From Chondrosia reniformis (taxonomy: Eukaryota > Porifera > Demospongiae > Chondrillida > Chondrillidae), in NCBI GenBank assembly GCA_947172415.1, contig OX359197.1, positions 62,001 to 126,000 of the forward strand: DNA of 64,000 bases, given 5' to 3'. Made by a program: the position numbers and the translations under genes. The notes under the pieces were generated by a model. That model searched no databases and had not been told where the DNA came from. It saw only the letters and a program-made list of their open reading frames with translations. Below are positions 7,717 to 55,238 of the stretch, piece by piece (position 1 is the first letter of the stretch; every line of letters begins with the position of its first letter).

Positions 7717-10700
7717 TTATTTGAAGTGTAAAAGGAACGTTTCCATTTCCATGGGTTTAATGTTTGCAGTCCGCTGTTCTGTTCCGTAAGTGTAAAGAGC
7801 TGAAAAACTGGTCTTTTCAATTCGTAGTACATTATTACCAAACATTTGCTGAAGATTGACTTGTCCATTGGTGAGTTTGCAGTAGGTGGGAGGGGCCAGG
7901 TGACAGGCCACACCCTTACGATGCAGGACAGCAGCCACTTCCTGTGTGTTACCATGGTGATGTGTCCTTAATGTGACCAGGTGCATATCACAGGGGAGTG
8001 GCTGCAGCAACTGGAGAGACGTTTTCATCTTGTTGACAGCACTTGAAGTGTGACCCAAAGAGAAGACTTGTAGAGGGTGAGCAAGCATCATTGAGGTGGA
8101 GTGGGACAGGGGAGAAGGGTAGGACAGGTCCTTGGTGTTCTAGAGGTACCAAGTGAGGTCATGTGACAGTCATGTGACAGAAATAGAATTTATATTCACA
8201 TACAGGTTTGTTGGTTGCAAAGGGTTCCACTAGAAGTCTAAAAGTGGATCTAGTGTTCATATTGTCCTTGATGCCTTGAGACAAACCTCTGTTGTCATCC
8301 TGCATCAGCCTCCGATCCAGCATCACCTCCAACCAGCCTGTCAGAAAACAGTCCAGTTAATGAGTGGGCAATAAATGGGGTGGCAAGTGGGCGGAACTAA
8401 TGATGGGTGTGGAAAGTGGGCGGAACTAATGATGGGTGTGGAAAGTGGGCAAAACTAATGATGGGTGTGGAAAGTGGGCGGAACTAATGATGGGTGTGGA
8501 AAGTGGGCGGAACTAATGATGGGTGTGGAAAGTGGGCGGAACTAATGATGGGTGTGGAAAGTGGGCGGAACTAATGATGGGTGTGGCAGATGGTATTACC
8601 TTGCTGCAGAGATGCTACTCCTAGAGGTTGTCCAGTATGAAGACTCATTCTTACACTGTCGTCCTCCAGCTGGGCAAGTGAGGGCAGTGGATAAAAGTTC
8701 CCTTGAAGTGGTAGCTTGGCTTGCGTTCTGCGTTGTACCATCTCCATAAGAGGATGAGTCAACATTACGTCACTACACTAACTACATGGTGTCCGACAAC
8801 TTACATGAAAACCATTAAGGTCAGTGTGAAAGATTCCATTTTTGTTTTCTATGTTGGTCTTGAATCTCATGGCTACCTCCTGCAAGGAGACAGCACATGG
8901 GAGGATCAAGGGAAGATGCATCAAAGGAATGGAAGAACACACTTTATTGATTTCCTGACTAATGTCTACTTCATTAGTTATGTGCAGGGAAGAGCTGGCT
9001 GCTCCAGGAATAGTTTCCATGGTTACGGTATGATAAATGTCCTTGTGGATAAAGCAGTGCATCTCTTTAACCTAACACCAAAAGTCACATGATGATCACA
9101 TGACCATATACAACTTCATGATGATCACATGACCATATACAACTTCATGATGATCACATGACCATATACAACTTCATGATGATCACACGACCATGAAAAA
9201 TCTAAGATACCATTTTCCTACATGCTATGCCTATTCTGTAAAAGAGCCTATAGGGGAACTAAGCCTGAAGAGAGCTTTGGATGAAGATACAGGAGTATTT
9301 TCTTCCTTCTTTTCCCTTCTCTCATCTTCTTCTCCACTGGGTCAGACAGCTGTTTCTGGGAATTCCACCCTTCATCAGTGATCCTGGGAGTCTTTGTCTT
9401 TATCTTTATCTTGATCTTCTGTGAATCCTTGGCCCATGTACAACTTCACAAGTCACATGATGATCACATGACCATGTACACTCACCAGTGGTCCTGTTAC
9501 AACTCTAAATGGATAATTGTGATTATTAACAACACTCGTTGCGTGTCCGTCTGGCAGAAACAGATAGGCACCACTCCTATCTCGACCAGTGGTAGTGCCA
9601 TACATAACAAAGTCTGTATCCATGGAAACGCTAACTTTACCCACTGTAATCTTTTGCAGTAGACCATTCTTTCCACTAAATTCTGCGTTCAATGTATCAG
9701 TTACCATAGAAACCACTTGAGGATTTTTGTTATCAGTTTGATGAAAAGAGACACCAAAATGGTCGACCATTTTCTTTTGATGCGTTACCATGGTAGTAGG
9801 CATGTGAGCCAAGTGGATCTCAGCTAATGTACAATGAGTGGTCTTCGAAGGGACTACCTGATATGTCTCTAGTGCCACTCCCGACAACACAGAGGGAAAT
9901 ACAAGTTCAAACTGGCCAGATTCATATACTGATTTGTCTTGACTCCATACTGGATTGATCTGGCATGGTATTGCTTCTCCGTTGCCATTGACAACAGAGA
10001 GCAATACTGTGTTGACCCTCAATCTCACCAAATCAATTCTGTTTACTGCAAGTGAGTTATAGACCATCACACTCCTATAAAATGACACATACACTCCACT
10101 GTAGGCCACTGGGCACAGATAAGAGCACAGGCACTTAAATAAGAGCCTATCCGACCACTGACCTTGACTGGTCCACTTGAAGCAGATTGAGTTTGGGGAG
10201 ACTGTTGTGAGATGCTCTCAATTCATTAAAGTTCAGAGTGACATCAGCTGCCTCATCGCCACTCAAAAGTGCTCGAGCAGACACTCCCATCACCTCTTCT
10301 GCCGCTCTCAAAGCATCTAGCACTCTGAGGGAAACACACACATCACATGACTTCAGATCCAATACTTCCTGTCATGTGACCTACTTCCTGCCATAATCAA
10401 TAACCACTCGATCCTTGGCAGTGCCCGTGATTCCATCGTGATGTTGAAAGAGGCCGAGGTTGCGCCTTGCGACTACCAACTTGTTGTAGATGCTTGTGGG
10501 TGGAGCTACGCCCGCAGCAACTGTCATTGAGTAGAGTATGTCAGCTGATCTACAAAGCACACCAGATGTGAGTTAGCACTTGGTCATGTGATGGTCACAT
10601 GATCAACTGTACCGCAATCTAGTCTCCATTACACGGTCAAACCTCTTGTAGAACGGACGTGTAGTGTAGTATCCACTCCAGTAGTGATCATCTCTATGGA

Positions 10701-13680
10701 ATAGCAGTGGGAGGAAGAGGGGTGTGGTCAGTGGGAGGGAGAGGGGTGTGGTCAGTGGGTGGGGCAAGGCTGGGGCATTACCTGTCAGAGTATGTGTAAA
10801 AGTCTCCACTTAAAGATGGAAAGTCCGGCACTGACTCACTGCCAGAAACACCTAACCAACATACAATAGCTAATTCACTACATGATATTAGGAATAGGTC
10901 AACAACCTTTGCTCTTGCGCAATGCATCAAAATAATCTGAGAGAGTGCCAAAGTGCATCTAAAACAAATTAAAATGTCACATGATAGTCACATGACCAAT
11001 TGGACCGCAGATGTACACACTTGGGTGTGGTAGGATGGGCGACTATTGACATGATCCATAATGGTCTTGTAGTAAGAGTATTGCGCGTCCACCTCACTAG
11101 CCACATCGTATCTAAAGTCGTCTCCAAGTGGCACCAGGAGCACGTTTGTCCTAAAGAGCTGTGCCTTCTTTTTGTATTGGTCGAGGAGAAGCTTTGACCT
11201 CTCTGCCACATTGCTGGAGGTAATCTCCTGCGGAGGGGTTCTCCAGGGACAAGAGACTTTCAGTTTGAGGGAAGGAAGACGTTTGAAGTCAAACTGGCAG
11301 CAAACCTACAGATACAATGTATTACAGCTAGTTTGATAGACTCTATTTGTGCACACATGTTGCCATGGTTACCTTAGGATCTGGCCCACAGGTATGGGGT
11401 ATGTCGTAGGAATAAAATGGCATCATGTGACAGAGCATGTCAGTACTGCCGTCTTGGTCTGTAGGGCAGGGAGGCATATAGATATACATTGGAAGGGGCG
11501 AGGTCTATATCATTAAGGGGTGTGGTCTATATTAAGGGGCGTGGTCTATATTAAGGGGCGTGGTCTATATCATTAAGGGATGTGGCTAAAGACCTACCCC
11601 ACTCCTGTCTCCACATAAATTCAAGGTTGGTATCTTTGGCAAGCTTCTTTTTGATGTTGTAATGGACTCTTTGGATCAGCATGTTCTCCAATCCCAGACC
11701 TTTCAACAAGTAGGCCATTGTGGGGGTGTGGCCAAAGGGATCAATAGCCCATCCAGAACGGGGTTTTACTCCTTAATTAAATGTAAATAGAGTATTCAAT
11801 ACATTTTTCCTACATGCTATATCTACTTTAGAGTAAAATCTATATATGGGAAATGAGAGCTTTAGACGAGGATACAAGAGTTTCCTCATTCTACTTCTCT
11901 TCTTCTCCACTGGGACAGACAGCTGTTTCTGGAAATTCCACCCTTCACCAGTGACCCTGGGAATCTTCGTGAATCCAATGCATTGAATACACATCCATCA
12001 TCTGTGAGTATGTACCTGGAAGGTGCTCCTTCATCCACCAGTGACCCTCGATCAGCTGGTCTAGCATGGCATAATAGTGAGTGTTTGCTTCGTCGTTCAT
12101 GACCCACCCTCCAGTGACTATCTCAAGTTGTCCATCAGACAGTAACCTGTAGAGGGAGGGAGGGGGTGGTTGAGTGGGTGCTAGGGAGGGGGTGGTTGAG
12201 TGGGTGTTAGGGAGGGTGGTTGAGTGGGTGTTAGGGAGGGGGTGGTTGAGTGGGTGTTAGGGAGGGGGTGGTTGAGTGGGTGTTAGGGAGGGGGTGGTTG
12301 AGTGGGTGTTAGGGAGGGGGTGGTTGAGTGGGTGTTAGGGAGGGGGTGGTTGAGTGGGTGTTAGGGAGGAGGTGGTTGAGTGGGTGTTAGGGAGGAGGTG
12401 GTTGAGTGGGTGTTAGGGAGGAGGTGGTTGAGTGGGTGTTAGGGAGGAGGTGGTTGAGTGGGTGTTAGGGAGGAGGTGGTTGAGTGGGTGTTAGGGAGGA
12501 GGTGGTTGAGTGGGTGTTAGGGAGGAGGTGGTTGAGTGGGTGTTAGGGAGGAGGTGGTTGAGTGGGTGTTAGGGAGGAGGTGGTTAGGGATGCATAACTA
12601 ACTCCTTAAACAGTTGTTTCTGTGCTTCCTGTTGTTCCTGCCACCAAAGGTGGAGGAATGATATTTCTGCATAAATAAATTTTCTATTTTTGTCTTGACT
12701 CAAACTTTTGACTATATTGTTGAATATATTCCGTGTCTGTTTGTTATAATACTCCTCATACGTGACCAGCCACCCGGGGTCATTGTGGGAATGGGGCACC
12801 ACAAACACCTAATTGGAGGAAGGAGACACGCCCACTTTTCCATGACACACCCAACAAATCAAGATCCCATCCCAAAGATACACTCACTTTTGACATTAAA
12901 GTTATTTGTAGACACTACCTATAAGTGGTCGCTTGTCAACACTCACTTGAAGTGGATCTGACTGAAAGTCCTGCTCCGAGTAAGTAATGTCAAATCCCTG
13001 CTTCCAGACTCCTCCGTTGATGTTGTCAAAGGGTAGCTGGTCCATCAAATCCACCATTTTGATGTCTGTTTTACTGTTGGGTGGTCTACTGCTGAACTGA
13101 CACTCGGGGAGGTGAAACAAGTTAGGGAAAGTCCCTTCCTCAAAGGTGACCTTTACCTCCTTCCCTGCCACATCCACCTGAACCTGCTCCACCCCCTGGG
13201 GGTCAGGTATGGGCGTGGTTACCTCAGATATGACTGACAGCTCTGAGCGGACAGTCGTGGGCAGGACACGTGATTTGGTACTCCTCCGGCTAGCGGAAGT
13301 TACCTAACCGAAAGTGGACATCACATCTCATACAATGCACCTCTCACTACCAAACTACATGTAATGAATAACGAGCAAGACCATTAAGTGTACACTTAAA
13401 ATTGGCCAATTCCATAATCAAATTGGAAATACAAGAAGCCGAAATACAGTACAGTAAAAGGACGTGTTTCATCAAGCCATAGCTAGGTTCCAATGGACCG
13501 CTGGCGTACCGGCGTTGTACGTAGTCTACCGACTTTGGCTAGCGATCCCTCTTCAACATCGGACAAACTGTGTCTCAACAGAACGATGCTGCATATAAAG
13601 AAGACAGCTAAAAGGACGATACAGTATCTTCGAAGGACGAGCTTTCGTAAGTAAAACTTGCATAATTGTCCGCACACCAT
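7717..13680 (-). CDS. MAN2A1: Golgi alpha-mannosidase II (GH38)
   Basis: A type II Golgi membrane glycosidase that trims mannose from GlcNAcMan5GlcNAc2 during N-glycan maturation. Exon 1 (13510-13680) gives a short cytosolic tail, then a hydrophobic anchor ([14 protein letters not shown], about residues 20-35) and the start of a stem. Exon 2 (12947-13303) ends [12 protein letters not shown] and leads into exon 3 (12603-12808) with the catalytic block PHSHNDPGW. Later exons carry [37 protein letters not shown] (the nucleophile Asp region), [51 protein letters not shown] and a C-terminal [11 protein letters not shown]. The order matches MAN2A1/MAN2A2; which paralogue cannot be told. There are about 20 exons. 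Introns hold several minisatellites and two hammerhead-bearing repeats. Its start is 50 bp from the WDR7 start on the other strand. Confidence 0.95.
8384..8590. repeat. 29-bp minisatellite in mannosidase intron
   Basis: About seven copies of a 29-bp unit around AAGTGGGCGGAACTAATGATG, in the intron after the exon encoding [13 protein letters not shown]. Confidence 0.9.
9079..9192. repeat. 29-bp minisatellite built on ATCACATGA
   Basis: About four copies of a 29-bp unit containing TGATGATCACATGACCATAT, in a mannosidase intron. Each unit carries the TCACATGA word that is frequent elsewhere in the window. Confidence 0.85.
9205..9440 (-). mobile_element. Dispersed hammerhead-bearing element, copy 1
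   Basis: A near-complete copy of the roughly 220-bp dispersed family, in a mannosidase intron. On the plus strand it reads from AGATACCATTTTCCTACATGC through GAGCTTTGGATGAAGATAC and CCACTGGGTCAGACAGCTG to AATCCTTGGCCCATGT. The sense strand, defined by its ribozyme, is minus. It matches the copy at 54372-54592 along nearly its whole length. Confidence 0.85.
9338..9388 (-). ncRNA. Type-I hammerhead ribozyme, copy 1
   Basis: On the minus strand, CTGATGA (9378-9372) is followed by a 15-nt helix II segment (GGG...CCC), then GAAA (9356-9353), the self-complementary CAGCTG (9352-9347) forming a very short helix III, and TC, with predicted cleavage between 9345 and 9344. Helix I pairs GGATCA before the core with TGACCC after the cleavage site, with one mismatch. 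All core residues are intact. A weak point is an A-A pair where the 10.1-11.1 G-C is usual. Confidence 0.7.
11508..11582. repeat. Short GGGGCGTGGTCTATATTAA minisatellite
   Basis: About three to four copies of a unit of roughly 20-25 bp in a mannosidase intron. Nothing else is seen in it. Confidence 0.8.
11796..11985 (-). mobile_element. Dispersed hammerhead-bearing element, copy 2
   Basis: A copy of the same family in another mannosidase intron: TTTTTCCTACATGCTATATC, TTTAGACGAGGATACAAGAG, then CCACTGGGACAGACAGCTG and ACCCTGGGAATCTTCGTGAA. It is diverged from copy 1 by scattered substitutions and small indels. Confidence 0.82.
11912..11960 (-). ncRNA. Hammerhead ribozyme, copy 2 (core mutated)
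   Basis: The minus strand has CTGGTGA (11951-11945) where CTGATGA is expected, so the invariant A6 is changed to G. Helix II, GAAA (11929-11926), CAGCTG and TC are retained. In helix I, the 1.4 position is C-G rather than the C-A of copies 1 and 10, while 1.3 has become U-U. It is probably inactive. Confidence 0.6.
12160..12588. repeat. 26-bp minisatellite in mannosidase intron
   Basis: About sixteen copies of a 26-bp G-rich unit, GGAGGGGGTGGTTGAGTGGG plus TGTTA. An AGGAGG variant has spread through the second half of the array. It sits between the exon with PHSHNDPGW and the next coding exon and abuts the splice donor. Confidence 0.95.
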
Positions 13681-19537: not shown

Positions 19538-22238
19538 TTATACATCACTTGACTCTGAAGACTTTGAACGTTTACCTTTCGGTTCCTCTTCTTCAAACTC
19601 CACATCAGATTCTGCAAATTTTGTGATTCTGTATAATACACAGACCAACCCCACCCCTCCCCCTTTGGTCATCACCTTCCCCTCCCCCTTTGGTCATTAC
19701 CTTCCCCTCCCCCTTTGGTCATCACCTTCCCCTCCCCCTTTGGTCATCACCTTCCCCTCCCCCTTTGGTCATCACCTTCCCCTCCCCCTTTGGTCATCAC
19801 CTTCCCCTCCCCCTTTGGTCATCACCTTCCCCTCCCCCTTTGGTCATCACCTTCCCCTCCCCCTTTGGTCATCACCTTCCCCTCCCCCTTTGGTCATCAC
19901 CTTCCCCTCCCCCTTTGGTCATCACCTTCCCCTCCCCCTTTGGTCATCACCTTCCCCTCCCCCTTTGGTCAACCCCACCCCTCCCCCTTTGGTCATCACC
20001 TTCCCCTCCCCCTTTGGTCATCACCTTCCCCTCCCCCTTTGGTCATCACCTTCCCCTCCCCCTTTGGTCAACCCCACCCCTCCCCCTTTGGTCAATCCCA
20101 CTCCCTATTTTAGGCTTATGTAGTCAGGGGCTGCCCCATCCCTCTGGACCTTCCCCCAACCTACCATCTTCTTGGTTATCAAGGTCATCTAGACTGATCT
20201 CGTCAGGGTTAGCTTGAAAAGGTGTTTCCAGAGTAGATGTGGCTTGTGGGAGGGGCTTATATAGCCCAGGATTAAAACCAAATGGATTGCAAATTTCAAG
20301 TCTTGTACAAAACTCGACTGTCTGAGGGTGATCCACCTTTGTCACAGTCTCTGCAATGGACAGAGAGTCACACGTGTCTATACTGCTAGCTAGCATGTCA
20401 TTGGCTGACCTTCCCCCTGCCACGGATTGGAAGGGTCAAATGGAGCTACTGTCATGATAAAGTTTTGAGGAATCTTTCAAAGGAATATTTGTAATTAAAG
20501 GATTTCACTCACTAATAGCTACAGATATACCTACTGTAAAGTTGCCTTGAAATTTATCAAAAATCCATTTCAATTCATCTTCTGTCGGAGTAAAGCTAGT
20601 TCTTCTTGAACCCGAGGATGGTTGCCATGGTGACTTGGCAATGGGGATGTCCCCATTGATGGCTTTAGTCAGTGCCAACCACTGTGGATCGTAACTGAGT
20701 ATTTTGGGGCTGCCTTGGTCGGGGAAATCTAGCACCTATATCACAGGAAGAGCTCATTATGGTTCTGTCAACAACTTTAGACTTACTTTAAGAAACATTC
20801 TCTTTGGCAAACATTTGTCTAGTGCTAGAAAATAGGTACTCTCTGGCTGCGAGTTGCTAGGTGTACAAAGTGGATCCTTTGATGTGGTCAGTGGATCCTT
20901 TGATGTGGCTGGTGGATCCCTCGATGTGGCTGGTGGATCCTCTGATGTCGTCGGTGGATCCTTTGATGTGGTCAGTGGATCCTTTGATGTGGTCAGTGGA
21001 TCCTTTGATGTGGCTGGTGGATCCTCTGACGACCTAGTGTTCTCTCTATGCAGATAAGTTGCCTCAAATTTGACGTGCAAGTGTCCAGCGAACCAGTACT
21101 TGGGTTTCAGATGGTCCATCAGCTCCTTGCCTGCAGGACTGCCCAGTGTCCGGCTCCTAATCTACACAAACAGACCACTCACACGTTATAGAGAGAGTGC
21201 AGATAGTAAATCTGTGGAAATACCTCCTTTTCAAAGTACGGCTTTATCCTAAGCAGCTGCTGAAGGTTGCCATGGTAATATATTTCCAAAGGCCAGTCAT
21301 GTGACATGAAGATATCAATTTGCCCAGTCAACTATATGGAGATAAGTTATACTGAAACAAAGGGAGGGGCTGATGGAGGGAGTGGCTGATGGAGGGAGTG
21401 GGAGGGGCTGATGGAGGGAGTGGCTGATGGAGGGAGTGGGAGGGGCTGATGGAGGGAGGGACTGATGGAGGGAGGGGCTGATGGAGGGAGGGACTGATGG
21501 AGGGAGTGGCTGATGGAGGGAGTGGCTGATGGAGGGAGTGGTTGTTACAAGATTAATACCTGTTTCAGTTTAAACACTTCAAACTCTCTTGTGTGATATG
21601 CACTCTTTATCATATTTCTGGAGAAGGGCAGCCTCTCATAGTGTCCCAGCTCATAGTGATACTCGTTATATATTCCAGACACACCAGCGATCCTCAACCC
21701 CCCAAAGAACACTACTCCCGAGTACCCTAAGTAGTATATGTTGGGGGCTACCCAACCACCGTAGGCTCTGAGGGGGCGGGGAGGGAAAGGGGGCGTGGCA
21801 TGTGAGGGATGGGTGAAGTTGTTGCAGTACCAAAACAGTGATGCTTACAATTCAAGAAGATGATTTGACGCCTCGTGATTTCCTCCAACGAATACAGTCA
21901 ATATGGGAGCCTTTAGTTGACCTGAATAATACTGCACAGCCAGACCTCATTCGACGGAACACGACTCGTAGCCATAGCAACCTACCTTGTAAAAGGACCC
22001 CATTTCCTTGTACTTGTCCGGTACAGACATCATCTCGAGATCCGCTCTGTTCCTGACCGCCTGAAAGTCCCCGCAACACAGCAACAAGTCAATCTTGATT
22101 CCTTCGTTTCGTTCCCTCTCCGTTAGTATCCGATACACCGTCTCCAACTGACCATGCAAGCATCCTTCCACTGCCACCTACAAAATGGACCAAACGTCAG
22201 TCGCTAGCAGGTCAGTAGGGGACCTGCTGTACCTTCAT
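19538..22238 (-). CDS. DBR1: RNA lariat debranching enzyme
   Basis: Hydrolyses the 2'-5' bond of excised intron lariats in the nucleus. Exon 1 is only ATGAAG (22233-22238), spliced to an exon starting [11 protein letters not shown], so the start reads MKVAVEGC. Metal-ligand motifs are present in order: GCLHG (the Cys/His pair), [31 protein letters not shown] and [20 protein letters not shown] and [15 protein letters not shown] follow, then an acidic/basic tail ending SSESSDV at 19538. A 21-bp coding minisatellite (20870-21030) inserts about eight copies of a seven-residue DPxTTSK repeat between the HLHVKF and FLALDKCLP motifs. A small intron of about 60 bp is needed near 20360-20420 to keep frame. 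A 25-bp minisatellite fills the last intron. Confidence 0.95.
19650..20105. repeat. 25-bp minisatellite in last DBR1 intron
   Basis: About eighteen copies of CCTCCCCCTTTGGTCATCAC plus CTTCC, with a few CAACCC variants. The open frames across it are an artefact of the repeat. Confidence 0.95.
20870..21030 (-). repeat. 21-bp coding minisatellite in DBR1
   Basis: About eight copies of GTGGATCCTTTGATGTGGTC on the plus strand, encoding [21 protein letters not shown] on the minus strand. The 21-bp unit preserves the frame. It lies in a loop of the metallophosphoesterase domain that is short in the human enzyme. Confidence 0.92.
21358..21548. repeat. GGCTGATGGAGGGAGTG minisatellite
   Basis: Roughly eleven irregular copies of a 16-20-bp unit in a DBR1 intron. 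Confidence 0.85.
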
Positions 22239-22286: not shown

Positions 22287-24828
22287 ATGGCTGCCAATCA
22301 GCTAGTCTTTTCTGGAGGTGGCGATCTGGCCGCAGTGGCCGAAAGCGGCAAAATAAAGGTATGGAACTCGAACAATAAAACCGTGCAACTGGAACTGGAC
22401 GCGTTAGGCGCAATCAACTGTTTGCGGTTTGCTCCAAAAGCGGACGAATCGCTGTTGGCTGTTGGAAGTGCAAGTGGAGCGACCGTTTTGTACGATCTGA
22501 GGAGAGGAGAAGAAAGTGCGAAGTGGGTGAGTTCTACTTCATCTCAGTTCTGAGCTCTAGTCGTGTTGTGTTAGCTTCAGAAGCAAATGGATGCAGACTA
22601 GTCTGATGAAATCAGACCCTGTTATTGCGCAACGCAGACTGTGTGCATTTCATGTCTCAACGAGCTGGTCCCAACTTTGTGTGTGTAGGAAAGCTCCGTT
22701 AGCGTGACTGCTCTGGAGTGGAGCAGCAAAGGAGACTCTCTGTACATTGGACACGAAGATGGCACCCTGGTCCTTTGGACCTTGGGGGAGGGGGAGGGGC
22801 AGGAGGGGCGGGTCAAGTGAGTGAGATTGTCCCATGTGTGCAAGTGCAGTTAGTCAGTCCTGCTGGACCACAGTTGCCATAGTTACCACAGTTGCCATAG
22901 TTAGGTGCCATAACTATCTGAGCAGCTATCGGTTGTTCTCGGTATACCACTGGTTGTCTTGACACCCGATGAGTCACTTAAGCTGTCTCACATTAGCCAC
23001 TTTCTGGTCACTTGTGAGTGTCTTTGTACATCTCTAATGTGTTTTGGAAAGTGATTCCTCTCTCTTGTAGGAGCTGTAAAGTGGATCAGATCAGTGTCTG
23101 TGCCATCAAGTGCTGTCCCGCCACCAAGTACCTCATCCTCGCCACCAGAAGTGTCCATCTTTTTAGTTTAAAGAAGCAAAAAGCAACTCAGGTGTGCCCA
23201 TATAGGGAATGTGTTGACAAATGTGATGTACCATATAGTGACTGATGGTTGTAGAAATTACTTTTGTGGAGTTAATACTGCTTATTTTCATGTATGTATG
23301 TATGTATGTATGTATGTATGTATGTATGTATGTATGTATGTATGTATGTATGTATGTATGTATGTATGTATGTATGTATGTATGTATGTATGTATGTATG
23401 TATGTATGTATGTATGTATGTATGTATGTATGTATGTATGTATGTATGTATGTAGTATGTATGTATGTATGTATGTATGTATGTATGTAGTATGTATGTA
23501 TGTATGTATGTATGTATGTATGTATGTATGTATGTATGTATGTATGTATGTATTAAGGTTTGTTGGTCCATTTTATGGTGCAGAAATACTCTGGTCATGT
23601 TGGCAAAGTTAACTCTTTACAGTGGATTGACTCCACCCACTTTATGTCTGCTTCCCAGGAAGAGAGAGCCATCCATATATGGTAAGTGTTACCATGGTTA
23701 CAGTTGTAGCATTATATTGGCATTCTATCCCTATATAGGAAGAGGAAGTCTTCTGTTCCCATGGCAACCCTCACATGTCAGAGCAATGTTATATCATGTG
23801 ACAGCCATCTTGATTCAGAAGGAGATGTGTGTAGTGTGGTTGCCATGGGAGACGATGGGTCAGTGAAGGTTTTCAAGTTTCATCTGTCCGACCCACAATC
23901 TCCTTCCGCCTTTTCTCTTCATTTGGTGCAGCAGAGAAAGGTTTGAGGAACCAGACCATGCACGAATGGAGAGTCTGTTATTTAGCTAGTATCTGTTGTG
24001 TGTGTATAGGATGGTCCCATTCCCATTTCTCTACTGGGAATCAGAATGCTTTCTGAGCAAATTCAAGTTGCCTATGGTTTTGCTATTCAACCAACCTTTG
24101 AAAAATTTGTAAGTTTTTTCCTCAATTTTAATGTTGAGAGCCCCACCCACTTTGCCACTCCCACTTTAGCTGACCACATCTGATGAATCCAGTACTGTGG
24201 TAATTAGAGATGTTGAAAGCAACTTATTGTTGCCAGGCAACAAGAGATCAAAGAGTAATTTGATTCCTAACAAGGTTCATGTGTCAGGTTCCAATCCAAA
24301 GAAAAGGAAAGTGGAAAAATCTGAAGTGAGTTTGGGAATTTGAACTGTGTGTATCGCTTGACCAACTCCCTTTGGTGATCCAGCAAAGTTTTGAGGGACT
24401 CTTACACTCTGCCAAACTGAACGCTAAAGAGAGACCCACTACGGAATCAGTTGCACAACTGCTCACACAAGCAGTTCACTCCAGGGACAGCAAGCTACTA
24501 GAGGTACAAGATCACCATTTTCTTACATCCTACATCTACTTTACAGTAAAGGCCTATAGGGAACTAAACCTAGTGAGAGCTTTGGATGAAGATACAAAAG
24601 TCTTCTTCTTCTTCTCAACTGGGCCATATACATACTATATATAATACTTAGGTATATATGTATATACTTAATGATATATGATATGGCAGTCAGGCTATGT
24701 ACCTGGGTGGACGACCTGGTAGCCTTAAGTGGCGATGGTTTATACGTGTCCAGGTATAGCCCTGTGCCCCTTAACCAGAACTGGTTGGCATTTATCTACA
24801 CCTTAATGTATGTACATGCATGGGCACT

Positions 24829-25765: not shown

Positions 25766-28700
25766 TTACTGCATACTGGGGACCTGCGACACCTCCTCTT
25801 GGATCTGACTGTCTGACGGCATGGTGTACAGCACGTTATCCAGGAGCTGCAGTGCTCTGTGTAGCTGCACCTCAATCCAGCAGGGCGTCTCCTTGATGCT
25901 CTGCCTCCGGTAGTCTGGGCCCCAACCTTTTACAAAACTGAGTCTCAATATGCATAACCTTCTCAAGTCATCTACTCCAACACCTTTGTTCTGTACAGCA
26001 TTCACTTGGAGAGAGGAGTGGAGCTTGCCTAATATGGAAACAGATGAATCTATTATTATACTAGGTGGGCGTTATGAACTAACTAGTTCAATTGTACAAG
26101 AGATTTGTCCATGTAATCCCAACAAAGTGGTCAACTGGTGAGAAGTAACGAGTACATTTCACCCTTCAGACCTAACAACTACACAATAACATCACCTACC
26201 TAGCATGACTAGACTTAGAGAGAAGAAGAGAAACAAGGACTCCCAGGGTGACTGATAAAGGATTCCAATGCTCTATACCTCTACCATAAGTGAAATAGGT
26301 TGGGAGAACAGTCTTTTAAGTATTTCCTTTAGCTGTATAGTATTGATGCTAACCATATCTTTAGGAAAATGGTACATGTAATTCCAATTGCCGTATAATA
26401 GACGGGGAAGGTTTTATATCATTGATAGTAAAAACACTTGTGGTTGGTTATCACTGGTCTAGGCTGCATGTACCTTGAACAGCAGCCTGCTGTCTCATGG
26501 CTACAGCTGTGGCTGCACTGGCTTGTCTCATCATCTCCTCATGGCAGTAGTACAAATCAAACACCTACGGCAAGCAACACAGAAATAAGTGACTAAACAA
26601 ATAATTATACAACAAACATCAACCGTATTCCCAAATGTAACATGCCTAATTCACGATAACCTCATTTGTATACTGTTGATATCACTAGTTAGGTAGAGTT
26701 ACATGCTCTAATTGTATCAGTCTCCCTTTGACAAGTGCAGGCCAACACACCACGAGAGGTCATTTGGCTGGGGGAGATCCCTGCTCATTAAAAACAGTTC
26801 CTGCTCATCAAAATTACCCAGGGAGATCCCTGTTCATTAAGAGAGACACCTGCTCATCAAATTCCATCTGGGAAATCATTTTTAATTGGTGACTAATTAA
26901 AGGAATATCCTTACAGACTAATTAAAGGAGTATCCTTACAGACTAATTAAAGGAATATCCTTACAGACTAATTAAAGGAATATCCTTACAGACTAATTAA
27001 AGGAGTATCTGTACAGACTAATTAAAGGAATATCCTTACAGACTAATTAAAGGAATATCCTTGCAGTATTCAGCTGTAATGTCAGTCTACAAACCTTTAT
27101 ATAAGCTTTTGGGTAGATCTTGTGGACTGCGTCGCCGGGAGCTCGACCTGCCTGATGGTCCAGAAAGTAGCTCTGTACAAAAACACTATGGTCGCTAAGG
27201 CAACGGATCCACACCTCCCCCTCGTTCTTGGTCTCCAGCTGAATGCCCTTGCCGATGTGAAGACGAGCCCTTTCACTGGCATCCGTGCGGTGGACATTGG
27301 ACAGTCGACCGAGGCAAAACCTATCTCCGCCAGAAGGGTCTACGTAACCATCCACAGTAACTGAGTTCAAGGAGTATGGGACTTTGAAGAGCTCTCCAAC
27401 TTGTGTGTCCATTTCAAAGTAGGAGACAGTGCACCAAAAGTCAGGAGCTATGGAGGGAGGCACGCAGAGAGTAGGCGGGGCACAGGTGGGTAGGACTTGA
27501 AATGTGGTAAGATAGGGGGCAATGGATCAAAGTGTATTTACTTAAGAAAACATTTGAATCAGACAAAATTCATTAAATGGAAAATTGTTTTACATTAATA
27601 CATATCAAGTTAATGTGGTGTGAACAAAGCCATTAAATTTGCATTAAAAGAATACCTTTACCGCAGAAACAGGTCTACTGTATAAACCACATACTTGGGA
27701 GCTATTGATCACCTTGTATGTAGGTAACTCACGTGGTAGCCGTGGTAACGGAGCCTTTGGCATTGTTCTTGCTGTAGTTGGTAGACTGACAATACTTCCA
27801 CTGGCTGCAGAAGAGAGGTCAAAGTGCAAAGGTCACACAAGTTTCCATTTAATGCCCATCATTCACAGCATAGAAACAACAATTACAAGCATCATATATT
27901 ACTGTTGTCATGGTGACCCTTCTACGTCTGGAAGGCTTACTCTGATAGGGTGACTGATGTTGAGGTGTAGGCATCGTCTGCATGGCTGCGTGGGTAGCAG
28001 TAGGGTCAAAGGGATGGAGAGACCCGCCTTGCCAGGACGCTACATGAGAGGGGAGGGGCAGGGATAGTGGGCGGGGTAGGGCAGGGCTAGTGGGTGGAGC
28101 TAGTGGGCAGGGGTAGGGCAGGGCTAGTGGGTGGGGAAGGGGAGGGGCAGAGGGTGGTACTTACGCATGACTCCTGTTGCATGCGACATGTGAGAATTGG
28201 GCATAGTGACGACCATATTGCTAGCTGCAGAGAATATGACGCAAGTACATAGAATATTAAATATATATGGCATGGCATGGTATGTATGTATGAATGTACA
28301 GCATGCATAATCAATAATACATAATATATAGATACATCTCATGAGAGAGGCTTTTGAGTAGGGTAGTGTGATTTGATAAGTAACAGTTGGTAATCCAATA
28401 CTTTTAGATATGAGGTGACGGTGATACTGAAACTAGAGGTGAGGTGTGTTTGGACAAGATCAAAGGCATTGCTTGCTCAGGGAGGAGAACATTTAAGATA
28501 ACTGATAGTACTTCTTTTCAACATTAGGCCTGACAGCACATAACATGAGACCTTAAAAGAGTACAAGTTATAAATACATTTTCATAATGGTCCTCCCTTC
28601 TCTACCATTATGCTCTATTCAGCAGTGTCAAATAACATTATTTTAAAATTAAGGATTCAGTTTTCTGCACTGTGAGCGTTTTTATATGGTGATGACCAAA

Positions 28701-37307: not shown

Positions 37308-40300
37308 TCACGGAACAACTTGATCTTGACGTGTCCCACAAGTGACTTCCATATGGTCGTCCAGTGGACCCATTTCCATATGGTCGTCCAGTGATACTGG
37401 CTGTGGTAGTTTCACGTGTGACCCTCCCTCCATGTGACTATCATGTGACCCTCCTTCCATGTGACTCTCATGTGACCCTCCTTCCATGTGACTCTCATGT
37501 GACCCTCCTTCCATGTGACTACCATGTGACCCTCCTTCCATGTGACTCTCATGTGACCCTCCTTCTGTGTGACCAACCTTTGGTTCCGCCCCCCTCTTCT
37601 GTGCCTTTGCCTTGGGAATCATAAACAATCCTTTTAGTTTCTTTAAGACTTCCGCAGCTTTTTTTGAGACCTTGCTACTTCCTCTATATTTACTAGCCTG
37701 CGAAATGAGACCACTTACTGTTAAGTGTAATTGCAAATATACTGTAGCTAGTACCAGATATAAGAGAAATGGATTTGAGATCAATAAATTCTGAATGTTA
37801 TATTTAACTACATGAGAACTCCACTTATTTATGTGGCGCACAAGAATAACTAGTGTCTCATTTTGAATACCTAACAAGTACAACTCCTCACTTGTTGAAC
37901 TGTCTTGACTATGAGAGGAAATCCTTCCACGTCCTCCCTAGTCAGGACCAGCTCCTGCACATCCACAAGTACCCTCACTGCCTGCTTCACATTCTGCACA
38001 GATGTACAGTCAACACAATCTATACTACAGTAGCACTATATATATATATATATATACATATACCTATATATCATAGACTGCCATTATAATAGTATAATAT
38101 GTAGTTTCTATTGTATGCAATGCTTTGTAGTGCTGCCAGTACTGATGTGGACCTGAGGGCGTGATGATGCTGTGAGAGCTTACAGGTGCTGCCTGTCTGA
38201 GTGAGAGAGTTAAGTTGTAGTTCAGGATCTTGAGTGTCTGTTCCAATGAAGCATTCTGAGACACTCTAACAAAATGGTATTCCTTCTCAGTCCTAGACTC
38301 AGCATCTTCTACAGAGCCCGTCTTTGCCTCCTTTATTGGAGCCTTCTTTGTTTCACTTGTTTTGCTTGAAGCAGTCCTTGCTGACTTTCTGTTTGGTATC
38401 TTGAGAGATTGAATCCTTTTGGGACCTCTCTTCACTTTGGAAGAGCCCAAGTCTTTTACACTCTTCTCAGGTATATCTCCCCTTCCACTTGTAGCCACAT
38501 CTCCTGCTGGTGTGGGTGTGTCCATGGTCCCTGTTGGTGTGGGTGTGTCCATGGTCCCTGTTGGTGTGGGTGTGTCCATGGTCCCTGCTGGTGTGGGTGT
38601 GTCCATGGTCCCTGTTGGTGTGGGTGTGTCCATGGCCCCTGTTGGGGTGGGTGTGTCCGTGGTCCCTGCTGGGGTGGGTGTGTCCATGGCCCCTGTTGGT
38701 GTGGGTGTGTCCATGGTCCCTGTTGGTGTGGGTGTGTCCATGGTCCCTGTTGGTGTGGGTGTGTCCATGGTCCCTGTTGGGGTGGGTGTGTCCATGGTCC
38801 CTGCTGGGGTGGGTGTGTCCGTGGTCCCTGCTGGGGTGGGTGTGTCCATGGTCCCTGTTGGTGTGGGTGTGTCCATGGTCCCTGTTGGTGTGGGTGTGTC
38901 CATGGTCCCTGTTGGTGTGGGTGTGTCCATGGTCCCTGTTGGTGTGGGTGTGTCCGTGGTCCCTGTTGGTGTGGGTGTGTTCATGGTCCCTGTTGGTGTG
39001 GGTGTGTCCATGGCCCCTGTTGGTGTGGGTGTGTCTACCTCCATACTCTTTGCTGATGACTCTTCATACTGTGGAGTGGGTGTGGCTTCGTTCAAATTAC
39101 TTTTACAACAAATATACTTTGCTGGAACTGATTCAATAACTGGTGAAAAGTCAGGATTGGAAGGGGGAGTGGCAGATCCACTGGCTGGAGGAACATCAAC
39201 CTTAGAGGGTGTGGCTGGATTGGAAGGGGGAGTGGCAGATCCACTGGCTGGAGGAACATCAACCTTAGAGGGTGTGGCTGGATTGGAAGGGGGAGTGGCA
39301 GATCCACTGGCTGGAGGAACATCAACCTTAGAGGGTGTGGCTGGATTGGAAGGGGGAGTGGCAGATCCACTGGCTGGAGGAACATCAACCTTAGAGGGTG
39401 TGGCTGGATTGGAAGGGGGAGTGGCAGATCCACTGGCAGATTTAGTGATTAGACTGTTCATCTCATTCAGATGTGTGTTCACAGGTGTTGGCTGATTCTG
39501 AAGTGACTCTTGAGACGGATCAAATTCTTCCTTTATTTTTGTTTTCATTCTAGAACGTTTCTCTCTTTTCTTTTCATTTTCATTCTATAAAAGAACAATT
39601 TGGTATGATTAACAATCTTGACACCTGGTTGCCATAGTTACCAGGTGTCCTGGTGATGGCCTATTCTTGCTGTCTTTGCCAAGTGTGAGCTCTAGAAATG
39701 GATCTTCCTCAAGTTCCCACAATCCTTCCATGAAACCTTTTCGATTACAAGCAATTTTGAGTTGTGACTTGTGTTCTTCAAAACTGAACAGAGAGTCTCC
39801 CTTTACGTAGCACCTGAAGGAGAGGAGGAGGGAGGGGTAGGACACCAGGCCTAGGGGAGGAGGGAGGGGAGGGGCGGGACACCAGGGGAGGAAGGAGGGG
39901 AGGGGCGGGACACCAGGGGAGGAGGGAGGGGAGGGGCGGGACACCAGGGGAGGAGGGGAGGGGCGGGACACCAGGGGAGGAGGGGCGGGACACCAGGGAA
40001 GGAGGGAGGGGAGGGGCGGGACACCAGGGAAGGAGGGAGGGGAGGGGCGGGACACCAGGGAAGGAGGGAGGGGAGGGGCGGGACACCAGGGGAGGGAGGA
40101 GGGAGGGGCGGGACACCAGGGAAGGAGGGAGGGGAGGGGCGGGACACCAGGGGAGGGAGGAGGGAGGGGCGGGACACCAGGGGAGGGAGGAGGGAGGGGC
40201 GGGACACCAGGGGAGGGAGGAGGGAGGGGAGGGGCGGGACATGCACCTGTCATGTAGGCCGTAAAGAAAGACTCGAAAACGAGTGTCTTTAATTCCTGTT

Positions 40301-44654: not shown

Positions 44655-47195
<2,541 letters not shown>

Positions 47196-49171: not shown

Positions 49172-49245
49172 TCTCAAATACCATTTTCTTAGAGCAGCAG
49201 TTGAGCCAATAGAGAGCTTTGGATGAAATATAAATCTTTCTTATT
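49172..49245 (-). mobile_element. Dispersed element, copy 7 (degenerate)
   Basis: CAAATACCATTTTCTTAGAG and AGAGAGCTTTGGATGAA match the family. The middle is deleted, and only CATCAGTGACCATAG about 50 bp on recalls the ribozyme. Confidence 0.55.
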
Positions 49246-49321: not shown

Positions 49322-49347
49322 ATAATAATAATAATAATAATAATAAT
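49322..49347. repeat. (AAT)n microsatellite
   Basis: Eight AAT repeats. They lie on the 3' side of the LINE fragment read on the minus strand, and may be its tail. Confidence 0.8.
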
Positions 49348-51939: not shown

Positions 51940-52596
51940 CCTCAATAAGGTGGATGGGATGATGACTACGAGAGATTATACACGTATTATATATAACCAT
52001 TGCAGAATTGCCAATATGCAACAGAATAGTATGTATATATTGGTTGGACTCAATTAAGTATACGCTATACAAATCCATTCTTACTATTATATCTATACTA
52101 TTATATATATTCTTACTATTATATCTATATCTTTGCATCTTTACTTTTTGTATGCGATGGGCACATTAGTAAACCTATTGCTGAGAATCGAACTCTGGAC
52201 AGCTGGTTATGACCACCAGTGCTTTCTACATGTAATTACCACAGCAAATCTCTCTTCTCATGCATGGTTCCTCCCACTGAAAGTGGTTCCTTTAACTACA
52301 AAATAGCTAATTAGTTGGCATTCACAGAGCAAACTGATAATTGGAGACCCAACCCACTTCCTGTGGGAGGGGCCAACTTAACCAATTGACGCAATCAACC
52401 ACAGGGAGAGCTGTGTGGGTAAATCTATGAATCTATTAATCAACTAATGTTCAATTGCATCCTGGATATAATACTTCATGACATATAAAAATTCAATCAA
52501 TATAATATCTAGACAGAACCATGCATATTAAATATAATAAACAAGTTGAGTAATCCAAGAGGTGATGGAAAATCATTTACAGTTTTTGTTACTTTG
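51940..52596. other. Intergenic region before HYPK 3' end
   Basis: About 650 bp of AT-rich DNA with TATATCTATAC-type tracts near 52080-52135. Two 3' ends converge here. No gene is recognised. Confidence 0.65.
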
Positions 52597-53780
52597 CTAA
52601 GCAGTTAAGGTACACAAAGTCTTAATTATATCTCCGCCATGAGACTGAAGACTCTTCTCGGCTACAGACTTGGGAATTTCTAGTTCTTTCATCTTAAAAG
52701 GAATAGGGGGAGTGATTATGTGACACATGCAAGTCATCAACTGCTACTAATTAATCACCTAAGGTCTTCATCTATAGTTACATACATAGTTCTTTTCTAA
52801 TAAAATACAAACACAAAATATGTTTTAATATAATATTTTACTAGACGTGAGATTGATAATTCCTTTGGGAGACAAATTGTATGTAAAATGTATCAGCAGG
52901 TTTGATGGAACAAATATACACATGTCATTCAGTGTAACTATGGTTAACTAACTATAAATTCCACATCTTCTTTTCGTATTTTAACTTTAGCTTGTTCCTC
53001 CTGAAATCTGAAAAGAAAAATAAATTACAAGTGAAAAGATCAATTAGTACTACATCTACTCTATATTAAAAGGCCTATAGGGAACTAGACCTAATATAAT
53101 TTGAATGAGAATACAAACATCTTCTCTTTATTCTTCTGCTCCACTGAACACAGTGAAATGGTAACTCGGTCTGACAAATTGGTTTGACTGAAAACTTGTA
53201 AATCTTCTTGTGTCAAGTTCATATGAAATATCTCAGATACCATTTTCCTACATGCTATGCCTATTCTGTAAAAGAGCCTATAGGGGAACTAAACCTGGAG
53301 AGAGCTATGTTACATTTGGAAGCATAAAAAGTATAAAGAGAGTATAAGTATAAAGAGTATTGAGCATACTAAATGTGTTGAATGAGTCAACCTACTTTTT
53401 AGCTTTTGCTTCACGTTGTACATCAATGTTTGAGAAAGCCTACAAGTACCACAAGATAATAAACATGCTTCATCCAAAACCAGTCATTGAATAAATTATT
53501 ATCATATGAGTGAATAAGAAATATATACCGGAAATATGTAAAGATATTAATTTGTACGAATTTGTGTGCCGCTCGTTTGGTACCTCGTGAAATGTGAGGT
53601 GGAATAGTAACTTTAGAAACAAATGTATGTTACCGAACTCAGAAAATATAGATTAATCACTTTTCCTATGTCTCCCTTGATCTCTTTCTCCTCTGCATAG
53701 TCAGTGACTCTCTCTAGACTGGCTGCACTCTCTGTGTCGTGAGTTTTCGGTTGTGACTGAGCTTGGTTTTGAGTCGCCAT
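52597..53780 (-). CDS. HYPK: Huntingtin-interacting protein K homologue
   Basis: A ribosome-associated regulator of the NatA N-terminal acetyltransferase. The first exon reads MATQNQAQSQPKTHDTESAA and SLERVTDYAEEKEIKGDIGKV, the hallmark HYPK N-terminal block. Small exons give AFSNIDVQREAKAKK (about 53395-53440), FQEEQAKVKIRKEDVEFI (about 52950-53005) and MKELEIPKSVAEKSLQSHGG plus DIIKTLCTLTA (52597-52690), the UBA-like C-terminal domain. Length is about 115 residues, as in animals. Two dispersed-element copies sit in an intron. The start is only 27 bp from the HDHD2 start. Confidence 0.92.
53046..53155 (-). mobile_element. Dispersed element, copy 8
   Basis: AAAAGGCCTATAGGGAACTA and flanks match the family, ending TTCTTCTGCTCCACTGAAC. 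The ribozyme half is missing. It lies in a HYPK intron. Confidence 0.7.
53222..53312 (-). mobile_element. Dispersed element, copy 9
   Basis: TCAGATACCATTTTCCTACA and TGTAAAAGAGCCTATAGGGG match copy 1 (9205 onward) closely. It is truncated after GGAGAGAGC. It lies in the same HYPK intron as copy 8. Confidence 0.8.
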
Positions 53781-53807
53781 TTTTATCGTGTTATGCAATA
53801 AGTTAAA
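53781..53807. promoter_or_regulatory. 27-bp HYPK/HDHD2 divergent start region
   Basis: The two ATG codons lie in an inverted arrangement, GCCATTTTTA ... TTAAAATGGC, so each start codon sits in a YY1-like AAAATGGC word. Core promoter and 5' UTRs must overlap the neighbouring coding sequence. Confidence 0.6.
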
Positions 53808-55238
53808 ATGGCCGCTAGAAAAGGCTTGGAAAGTGTACGTGCGATTCTGTTGGATCTGAGCGGTACGCTACACATTGAGGACAGTGCAACACCCGGTGCG
53901 GTGGAAGCTCTTGCGAGGTGAGTTTTATATTTATCTATTCTATATAGTATACTTGTAATTACGAGTTGGCCTACTTCTGAAGGTTAAGAAAATCAGGCTT
54001 TCTTCTAAAGTTTGTGACAAATACCACAAAAGAGTCGCAACGCTTCCTTCTCGAACGTCTGCAGAGAATAGGGTTTGCAGTAAACCAGGAAGAGCTGTAT
54101 TCTACAGTCACTGCAACCAGACAGTACATCTTGCGACACAAACTGAGACCGTTTTTTATGATAAACGATGACGTAATGGAAGATTTCTCCGGCATTGAAA
54201 CTTCAGATCCTAATGCTGTAGTCGTTGGACTCGCTCCAAATGCATTCAACTACTCCACTATGAACAAAGCATTCAAGTGAGTCCATTAATAATATATCAT
54301 CTAGTTTCGGCCATTTACTGTCCCAACTTGGTTCTGTAAATTGGAGAGTTGTGTATATAAGATTATGTATGCATGAGCCAAGGACTCACAAAGATCAAGG
54401 AGAAGACAAAGACTCTCAGGATCACTGATGAAAGGTGGAATTTCCAGAAACAGCTGTCTGACCCAGTGGAGAAGAAGAAAAGTAGAAAGAGAAGACTCTT
54501 GTATCCTCATCCAAACTAGGTTTAGTTTCCTATAGGACTTTACTCTAAAGCAGATGTAGCATGTAAGAAAAATGGTGTGTTAGATTATTCATGTGAATAT
54601 TGTCTGTCAAGTCTGTCTGTTGTACCAGTGTAGCTTGCTGAAGGAAGGGCCGGCAGTTCAGCTGGTTGCTATGCACAAAGGTCGTTACTACCGGCAGGGG
54701 GCGGAGCTCTCTCTTGGACCTGGCCCCTTTGTAGAGGCTCTGGAGTTTGCTACTGGTAAGGAAGCAGTCACAGTAGGCAAACCCAGCTCCCTTTTCTTCA
54801 GAGGTGTCCTTGACCAGTTGGGATGTGCCCCTGAGGAGGCTGTGATGGTTGGAGATGATTGGTGTGATGACATTGAAGGAGCTATGTCAGTCAGTATGAG
54901 AGGTGTCTTGGTACAAACAGGTTAGACTTGTGACGCCTGTAGTCTCTCTCCAAAGGTTTAGATGTAACAGAAAAAAGTTACAGTAGAGCTATTAAGTTTG
55001 AATTCTGACCATTTTCTGGAACATTGATCATATACCCTATATTGATCATATACCCTATATTGAAGATATACCCTATATACATATATTGAATATACAAATA
55101 TATTCATTGTAATTATATATTGTATATTTCTTATAAGGCAAGTATCGTCATGGAGATGAAGACAGAATGAAATTCAAACCAACTCTAGTATGTAAAAACT
55201 TTGCAGAAACTGTTAAACTCCTATTAAATAATAGATAA
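53808..55238 (+). CDS. HDHD2: HAD-superfamily phosphatase HDHD2
   Basis: A haloacid dehalogenase-type phosphatase of subfamily IIA; substrate not firmly known. It starts [20 protein letters not shown] (motif I) LHIED, then [20 protein letters not shown] (motif II), [64 protein letters not shown] (motif III Lys), [17 protein letters not shown] (motif IV) and [14 protein letters not shown]. This is the full domain order and length of human HDHD2. An intron near 54280-54625 contains the best-preserved hammerhead element. Its stop codon is 5 bp from that of the convergent exonuclease gene. Confidence 0.94.
54372..54592 (+). mobile_element. Dispersed hammerhead-bearing element, copy 10 (reference)
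   Basis: The most complete copy in ribozyme-sense orientation: GCATGAGCCAAGGACTCAC, a purine-rich stretch, the ribozyme, CCCAGTGGAGAAGAAG, TTGTATCCTCATCCAAAC, TTTCCTATAGGACTTTAC, GTAGCATGTAAGAAAAATGG and TTAGATTATTCATG. Length is about 220 bp. No terminal inverted repeats or target duplications are evident to the eye. Confidence 0.88.
54413..54468 (+). ncRNA. Type-I hammerhead ribozyme, copy 10
   Basis: CTGATGA at 54425-54431, helix II region 54432-54446 (GG...CC), GAAA at 54447-54450, the self-complementary CAGCTG helix III at 54451-54456, TC at 54457-54458, with predicted cleavage after 54458. Helix I pairs CAGGATCA with TGACCC with one C-A mismatch. The core is intact. The minimal helix III is typical of metazoan type-I hammerheads, some of which work as dimers. 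Confidence 0.72.

What the first reader, a model, noticed from the sequence alone, without database searches (positions are those of the whole stretch)
9205..54592. A dispersed ~220-bp element carrying type-I hammerhead ribozymes, a candidate sponge retrozyme family
At least ten full or partial copies (9205, 11796, 24512, 26222, 35528, 45897, 49172, 53046, 53222, 54372) share the same ~220-bp sequence. Where the 5' part is retained it contains CTGATGA, a helix II, GAAA, the self-complementary CAGCTG and the GTC cleavage triplet, with pairing flanks for helix I. Copies 1 and 10 have an intact core, copy 2 has A6 to G, copy 4 has CTGATAA, and copy 5 starts inside the core. Metazoan retrozymes with type-I hammerheads are known as small self-cleaving circular-RNA-producing elements. 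Nearly all copies here sit in introns, in both orientations, as single units rather than tandem arrays, which is unusual for that class.
Basis: partly seen in the sequence, partly recalled or inferred. Interest (0 to 1): 0.9.

Follow-up and report, generated by a model that had tools for sequence, protein, structure and literature searches.

The report
Jumping-gene end repeats with ribozymes
The scattered 220-base repeat in this sponge genome is not a free-standing ribozyme element but the broken-off end of a Penelope-type jumping gene that carries a weakened self-cutting RNA motif, while a true ribozyme element lies nearby and bears insertion marks suggesting that Penelope-type machinery moves it.

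Summary
The host matches the sponge Chondrosia reniformis. The hammerhead core is present (a descriptor finds copy 1, and nothing in 150 simulated windows), but helix II opens with an A.A mismatch and Rfam scores none of these copies.

The family is not a retrozyme. Its 3' end is the end of the 655-bp pseudo-LTR (pLTR) of a ~3.5-kb Penelope-like element (PLE) with one 997-codon ORF. The repeats are solo, 5'-truncated pLTR copies: fixed 3' end (TTTTTC^AT), main 5'-end cluster 30 nt below a TATA box, short duplications. Of 60 sampled copies, 44 begin upstream of the ribozyme core and one exactly at the cut site, so templates were mostly uncut.

A true retrozyme lies outside the finding, at 59376-59711. 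Of 28 family insertions examined, 17 are head-to-head pairs. In the 15 pairs with both ends assignable, exactly one end carries a 44-nt extension. Fourteen of the 17 show 7-14-nt junction repeats. Published PLE insertions look like this, so PLE machinery probably mobilises this retrozyme.

The parts
9195..9433 (-). Young subfamily A2 pLTR copy, start-site to 3' end; hammerhead core and helices II-III at 9346-9378
11802..11970 (-). Old subfamily A1 copy; core has CTGGTGA
24513..24626 (-). A1 copy, 5'-truncated; begins exactly at the base after the predicted cut site
26223..26261 (+). Probable relic (39 nt, 85%); core CTGATAA
35527..35679 (+). A2 copy, 5'-truncated inside the hammerhead (starts AAACAGCTGTC)
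45890..46013 (-). A1 copy, 5'-truncated 5 nt below the predicted cut site
49211..49227 (-). Doubtful: 17-nt exact match only
53050..53146 (-). A1 copy, 5'-truncated 5 nt below the predicted cut site
53225..53309 (-). A2 copy, 5'-truncated
54375..54590 (+). A1 copy, start-site to 3' end; core letters intact, helix II decayed; predicted cut after 54458
59376..59711 (+). Copy of retrozyme family B (363-nt unit, 85% identity), outside the finding
59540..59571 (+). Hammerhead of the family B copy (descriptor hit); Rfam HH9 22.8 bits at 59525-59591, under its cut-off

Best explanation
The 220-bp family is the 3' part of the pseudo-LTR (pLTR) of a young autonomous Penelope-like element (PLE) whose protein has an N-terminal GIY-YIG-like endonuclease and a reverse transcriptase. 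The pLTR carries a TATA box, a probable start site 30 nt below it, and then a type-I hammerhead whose cut site lies about 90 nt into the RNA, upstream of the ORF. Inferred mechanism: the PLE protein nicks target DNA at AT and starts reverse transcription inside its RNA at ..TTTTTC^AT. Starting at the end of the first pLTR gives the short solo copies, from start site to 3' end; starting at the second pLTR gives body-length copies. The hammerhead core is conserved but its stems are weakened (A.A at the base of helix II). Shown: PLE anatomy, junctions, duplications, core conservation, 5'-end distribution. Inferred: promoter use, nicking, internal initiation, any self-cleavage in vivo.
For: L142 has two identical 655-bp direct repeats (2837-3491, 6338-6992) around a 997-codon ORF (3547-6537), with the hammerhead in each repeat. 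The protein has a GIY-YIG match at 126-159 (21.9 bits, cut-off 22.6) and 72 homologs; three of the five scanned have GIY-YIG at 90-193 and RVT_1 at 592-827; RT motifs are invariant in 20 aligned sequences. 46 ORF loci were scored, 9 of them open over 988-996 codons. 3' ends: 1182 exact 30-mers, 0 reversed. 5' ends of 60 sampled copies: 22 in one 7-nt cluster 30 nt below TATATAAGG, 14 at the edge of the fetched stretch or nearly so, 24 elsewhere. 55 of 60 3' flanks begin AT; duplications of 4 nt or more in 21 of 46 against 6.9 after permutation, never reached in 2000. Core intact in 40 of 43 copies that span it.
Against: Rfam gives no hammerhead score for the family. RVT_1 is not found in the ORF itself and is just under the cut-off in the homologs; profile search of solved structures finds no relative. 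The hammerhead is the best conserved part between subfamilies, but the substitution contrast is not significant once the two sequences are aligned well (4 of 68 against 21 of 150, p 0.11; indel columns 0 against 26). A2 prefers a non-hammerhead fold. Only one full PLE locus was read end to end.
Confidence: 0.87

Rival explanations
1. One reading: a free-standing non-autonomous retrozyme family that spreads through self-cleaved circular RNAs.
For: Type-I core with helix III (2 pairs and a palindromic loop) like the retrozymes of the same genome; thousands of first-look candidates.
Against: No tandem units in 72 A2 loci, of which 60 have short flanks; a promoter and an ORF-bearing source element; the 3' end is the pLTR end; 44 of 60 copies begin upstream of the core, so the template was not a cut monomer beginning at the cut site.
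Confidence: 0.04
2. The short copies are by now a self-sustaining non-autonomous (SINE-like) family: they are transcribed on their own and borrow the PLE protein, rather than being by-products of PLE RNA.
For: Short copies are common in the sample (22 of 60 in the start-site cluster) and A1 copies, an old subfamily, show the same anatomy.
Against: Start-site copies lack the TATA box, so most cannot be transcribed from their own promoter; every step is also explained by PLE RNA and internal initiation as in the anole PLE (PMC11167929, main text read).
Confidence: 0.2
3. The hammerhead of the family is a dead relic: core letters by descent, no catalysis in any condition.
For: No Rfam score; A.A at 10.1/11.1 in 42 of 43 copies; A.C mismatch in helix I of A2 and a preferred non-hammerhead fold; templates mostly uncut.
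Against: Core intact in 40 of 43 young copies and no indel in the 68-nt region between subfamilies; three of the four differences there keep pairing or lie in a loop. An axolotl hammerhead with U.U at the same place still cleaves (PMC7229834, passages). The anole PLE hammerhead is silent without its protein (PMC11167929).
Confidence: 0.4

Closest known systems
Hammerheads in pseudo-LTRs of Penelope-like elements (Cervera and De la Pena 2014, not held; seen through passages of the review PMC7761336)
   Same: Type-I hammerhead inside the pLTR of a PLE; many dispersed copies outside intact elements
   Different: Those are described as minimal, lacking helix III or the loop-loop contacts. Here helix III has 2 pairs and a palindromic loop as in the retrozymes of the same genome, and the base of helix II is A.A
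PAc, the Poseidon PLE of Anolis carolinensis (PMC11167929; main text read)
   Same: Hammerhead near the start of the RNA, AT-rich targets, internal initiation, unprocessed RNA as the main template
   Different: PAc has a C-terminal endonuclease and its initiation site lies in the ORF; here the endonuclease is N-terminal and the site is at the pLTR end
Metazoan non-LTR retrozymes (PMC7229834; abstract, passages and Discussion)
   Same: Family B of this genome: short non-coding unit (363 nt), type-I hammerhead, dimers
   Different: Family A, the finding, is not tandem and belongs to an autonomous element. Family B adds head-to-head pairs, which I found in no paper (0 papers with 'retrozyme' and 'head-to-head')
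Penelope elements of Adineta vaga (PMC3846280; passages)
   Same: Mostly head-to-head inverted ends, optional 31-bp tail on one of them, 8-10-bp duplications, TATA box in the pLTR: the pattern of family B
   Different: There it is the PLE itself; here the pattern is carried by a non-coding retrozyme. Family A does not insert head-to-head
PLE clade with N-terminal GIY-YIG (Naiad/Chlamys; names recalled, no paper seen; one search found none with 'naiad')
   Same: Domain order GIY-YIG then RT
   Different: Clade membership not tested by a tree

Membership tests
Penelope-like element (source of family A) | One ORF with RT and GIY-YIG endonuclease | tested here: met
   ORF of 997 codons in L142; GIY-YIG at 21.9 bits (cut-off 22.6) in the ORF, over the cut-off in three homologs with RVT_1 at 27.9-28.4 bits (cut-off 29.6); RT motifs invariant in alignment. 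Pfam RVT_1 is not reported for the ORF itself.
Penelope-like element (source of family A) | Pseudo-LTRs in (partial) tandem | tested here: met
   655-bp direct repeats, 100% identical, around the ORF in L142; one locus read end to end
Penelope-like element (source of family A) | Target-site duplication, AT-rich target | tested here: met
   21 of 46 with 4 nt or more against 6.9 permuted; 55 of 60 flanks begin AT
Penelope-like element (source of family A) | Inverted (head-to-head) ends, frequent in other PLEs | tested here: not met
   None in 72 A2 loci, 60 of them with short flanks; no close pairs among 46 ORF loci. Not a required feature: one A. vaga family has mostly direct pLTRs only.
Type-I hammerhead ribozyme (family A) | Conserved core CUGANGA..GAAA..UH | tested here: met
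   40 of 43 copies; 482 exact pattern matches, 0 reversed
Type-I hammerhead ribozyme (family A) | Three helices with a good covariance score | tested here: not met
   Helices I and III present, helix II with A.A at its base; no Rfam match; descriptor hit for copy 1 only when that mismatch is allowed
Type-I hammerhead ribozyme (family A) | Self-cleavage | not testable with these tools
   1 of 60 copies begins exactly at +1, 4 of 60 within -6..+3
Metazoan retrozyme (family A) | Tandem units of about 170-400 nt, no protein gene | tested here: not met
   Single units; source element carries an ORF
Metazoan retrozyme (family B) | Short non-coding unit with type-I hammerhead, in dimers or more | tested here: met
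   363-nt unit; 746-nt dimer in L069; RF00163 34.6 bits (cut-off 34) and 31.5 bits for its two hammerheads; 21 of 45 arms longer than one unit
Metazoan retrozyme (family B) | Circular RNA | not testable with these tools
   36 of 45 arms run across the cut site, which asks for a circular or oligomeric template

The most novel reading that the evidence does not exclude
In this sponge, Penelope-type machinery is the missing driver of an animal retrozyme. Circular or oligomeric retrozyme RNA is reverse transcribed from both strands of one target, one strand starting at TTTTTTC^AT and the other at TTATC^AT, 44 nt apart in the unit. This leaves head-to-head pairs with a tail on exactly one end, between junction repeats of 7-14 nt. 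A hammerhead-bearing PLE with N-terminal endonuclease shares the junction signature but inserts singly; PLEs related to the C-terminal-endonuclease kind share the head-to-head habit. PLE and retrozyme hammerheads of one genome would then form one exchangeable pool.
Probability: 0.55. Interest if true: 0.8.

Novelty: new variant of a known kind. Interest (0 to 1): 0.6.

Why it matters
A research paper and a review name PLEs as likely movers of animal retrozymes, and the review says that the repeats show no motif from which the partner could be deduced (PMC7229834 Discussion; PMC7761336 passages). The junctions of family B offer such a sign, because they look like published PLE insertions (PMC3846280 passages), and make the question testable within one genome. 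The family of the finding shows, in about a thousand young copies, that a PLE can keep a hammerhead core while reverse transcription uses mostly uncut RNA, in agreement with the anole PLE in vitro (PMC11167929).

Tried and rejected
Retrozyme or SINE origin of the 220-bp family: dropped when the pLTR and ORF were found. A pile-up of 5' ends at the cut site as proof of cleavage in vivo: three window fragments start at it or 5 nt below it, but the sample of 60 gave 1 exactly at +1 and 4 within -6..+3, a weak excess at most. Selection on the hammerhead region: a first alignment gave a strong contrast, partly from one alignment shift; realigned, substitutions are 4 of 68 against 21 of 150, p 0.11, with indel columns 0 against 26, so I call it conserved, not shown to be selected. 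Head-to-head insertion in family A: none seen. Family C: ends unclear, no TTWTC signature noticed (sequences, comparisons). That the strong RF00163 hits are family B: not supported, since their listed places differ from those; I read eight of the 65 loci (six of family C, two ~80% relatives of B). The family A element as the mover of family B: weakened, since B has longer junction repeats and head-to-head pairs, which fit the PLEs better. The hammerhead-like sequence in L046 is my reading only: Rfam gives no hammerhead there at E<=10. Solved-structure searches of the PLE protein: nothing useful. Not attempted: structure prediction, scans of viral or bacterial collections, the intron claim, a tree of the PLE.
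Full report
WHAT WAS CHECKED. The window is G000:C9:62001-126000 of a 117.38-Mb assembly in 15 contigs. Total length, 14 chromosomes plus mitochondrion and a longest scaffold of 10.41 Mb agree with Chondrosia reniformis, odChoReni1.1 (PMC12181767, abstract and passages). The identification is by numbers, not by a marker gene.

THE REPEAT. Eight of the ten places align clearly, 26222 is a 39-nt relic, 49172 is doubtful. Two subfamilies are present. A1 is old: 39 further scored copies are 83-88% identical to copy 10 and one partial copy is 77% (40 of 3279 candidates scored), and its 31-nt 3' end occurs exactly 23 times. A2 is young: 39 further near-full copies are 95-98% identical to copy 1 (40 of 2081 candidates scored), and its 30-nt 3' end occurs exactly 1182 times, the reversed pattern never.

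THE RIBOZYME MOTIF. A pattern for the core with a GGG/CC helix II has 482 exact genome matches and none reversed. In the 100 listed, by my reading, position 10.1 is A in all and 11.1 is A in 96, T in 3, G in 1. In the 43 of 60 sampled A2 copies that span the motif, the core is intact in 40 and 10.1/11.1 is A.A in 42. A descriptor that allows a mismatch at the base of helix II finds two sites in the window, copy 1 and 59540-59571, and none in 150 first-order Markov windows of the same length. Rfam speaks against the motif: no hammerhead match at gathering, at E<=5, or at E<=10 in 201-nt stretches of L142 and L022. The A1 majority sequence has helices I and II in its best fold; A2 prefers another fold (-14.4 against -7.5 kcal/mol for the hammerhead); but the full hammerhead of family B is also not its own best fold (-18.0 against -11.3), so these energies decide little. 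Between the A1 and A2 majority sequences the 68-nt hammerhead region has 4 substitutions and no indel, the rest 21 substitutions in 150 aligned columns and 26 indel columns; the substitution contrast alone is not significant (p 0.11). Of the four differences, one lies in loop III, one turns U.G into C-G in the outer helix, one turns G.U into A-U in helix I, and one breaks a helix I pair. The motif is conserved; selection is suggested, not shown.

WHERE IT COMES FROM. To sample 5' ends without bias I took 60 of the first 62 listed places of the A2 3' end and mapped where each copy begins (recounted in 89). Fourteen start at reference 3-8, nearly all at the edge of the fetched stretch; 5 at 38-108; 22 at 111-117; 3 at 122-162; 4 at 194-203 (the predicted cut lies after 200); 12 further down. 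The cluster at 111-117 (GCCAAGG) lies 30 nt below TATATAAGG. Followed outward, one long copy (L142, C1:4315200-4322300) shows two identical 655-bp direct repeats, 2837-3491 and 6338-6992, around an ORF of 997 codons (3547-6537), with the hammerhead at 3301-3334 and 6802-6835. The first ATG I see is near 3619. The protein has a GIY-YIG match at 126-159, just under the Pfam cut-off, and 72 homologs. Of five proteins scanned, the three close homologs have GIY-YIG at 90-193 and RVT_1 at 592-827, while the distant P0071 has the reverse order. RT motifs are invariant in an alignment of 20. This is a Penelope-like element with N-terminal endonuclease. Of the 46 scored ORF loci, nine are open over 988-996 codons without a stop, so it is young. 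tblastn found no part of the ORF in the window.

HOW THE 220-BP COPIES ARISE (inferred). RNA starts at GCCAAGG in the first pLTR and meets ..GATTTTTCATG about 240 nt later, at the end of the same pLTR, and again at the end of the second pLTR. Reverse transcription that starts at the first site gives a 240-bp solo copy; from the second it gives the body. The 3' junction is fixed: 55 of 60 flanks begin AT. Duplications of 4 nt or more occur in 21 of 46 copies against 6.9 after permuting flanks, a value no permutation of 2000 reached. The anole PLE starts reverse transcription inside its RNA, prefers AT-rich sites and uses mostly unprocessed RNA, and its hammerhead needs the protein (PMC11167929). 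The sponge copies agree: 44 of 60 begin upstream of the core, one begins exactly at +1. If the ribozyme works, it does not set the 5' end of most templates. A role in trimming tandem PLE transcripts remains possible and unshown.

THE REAL RETROZYME. Outside the finding, 59376-59711 is an 85% copy of a 363-nt non-coding unit with a hammerhead. L069 holds a 746-nt dimer, 99.5% between units, whose two hammerheads score 34.6 and 31.5 bits with RF00163 (cut-off 34). I examined 28 insertions after dropping repeated loci. They are the relatives most similar to the window copy (40 of 815 candidates scored) plus L002, L005 and the window copy, so not a random sample. Seventeen are head-to-head pairs with 3' ends outward. 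Of 45 3' ends, 41 fall at unit positions 12-20 or 330-341, the two places where TTWTCA occurs in the unit; I chose that motif after seeing the ends. In all 15 pairs with both ends at these sites, one end is the first site and the other the second, 44 nt apart. In the other two pairs one end is elsewhere. A shared stretch of at least 8 nt near the two outer junctions is found in 13 of 17 pairs against 6% after permutation; in 14 of 17 it is 7-14 nt. Of 45 arms, 21 are longer than one unit and 36 run across the cut site, so the template was circular or oligomeric; no arm starts at +1 (nearest 184 and 172 for a cut after 180). In Adineta vaga, Penelope insertions are mostly head-to-head, with an optional 31-bp tail on one of the inverted ends and 8-10-bp duplications (PMC3846280 passages). 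The match in arrangement is close. The family A element shares the letters TTTTTC^AT with site 1 of family B, but inserts singly. The genome also holds at least 60 loci related to P0071, a PLE with C-terminal endonuclease (about 30% identity). Among these 60 there are 10 close pairs: 9 head-to-head, 1 tandem, 0 tail-to-tail. A fragment of such a PLE in L046 carries TATAAATAG and a minimal hammerhead-like sequence near 704 (my reading; Rfam finds no hammerhead there).

VERDICT. The interpretation as a retrozyme family does not: the copies are ends of a PLE whose hammerhead core is conserved but weak. Hammerheads in PLE pLTRs are known (PMC7761336 passages), so the finding itself is a new variant of a known kind. 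The by-product, PLE-like insertion marks on a retrozyme, is the part I would follow. Searches for it in print: 'retrozyme' with 'head-to-head', 0 papers; 'Penelope-like' with 'head-to-head', 2, one seen in passages; 'retrozyme' with 'Penelope' since 2020, 9, three seen in parts. For sponge hammerheads, 'hammerhead ribozyme' with 'retrozyme' and 'sponge' gave 6 papers, none with a sponge genome in the title, and no listed paper held 'hammerhead ribozyme' (15 of 760 listed). The library holds open-licence papers only. Against the checked facts I lowered the claim of selection on the hammerhead and raised the odds that it is a relic; the odds of the PLE origin are unchanged.

Noticed in passing
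59376-59711: A copy of a true retrozyme family (363-nt unit, complete hammerhead) outside the finding; relatives insert head-to-head with PLE-like marks.
   Followed up: yes
L001, L003, L004, L006-L008: A second hammerhead family (C) with 39-43-bit RF00163 scores and the same GAAACAGCTGTC half; ends and unit not resolved.
   Followed up: partly
G000:C3:1599837-1600235, C6:3921765-3922163, C6:4724360-4724997, C8:2970648-2970983: RF00163 hits of 37.1 bits lie 354-355 nt apart in tandem, or on opposite strands within 300 nt (minus left, plus right); sequences not read.
   Followed up: no
L046:191-760: Fragment of a PLE with C-terminal-type endonuclease, followed by TATAAATAG and a minimal hammerhead-like sequence near 704; Rfam finds no hammerhead there.
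   Followed up: partly
L142:1-2836 and flanks of family B insertions: ACTAGT-rich satellite: 34 per kb in L142:1-2836; at least 2 per 600 nt in the flanks of 10 of 25 B insertions and of none of 29 A1 and 11 A2 loci.
   Followed up: partly
1-5077: Tandem satellite with 169- and 173-bp units, interrupted near 1721-2223.
   Followed up: no
12111-12656, 19579-20164, 38368-39170, 63615-64000: Minisatellites with units of about 26, 25, 27 and 21 bp.
   Followed up: no
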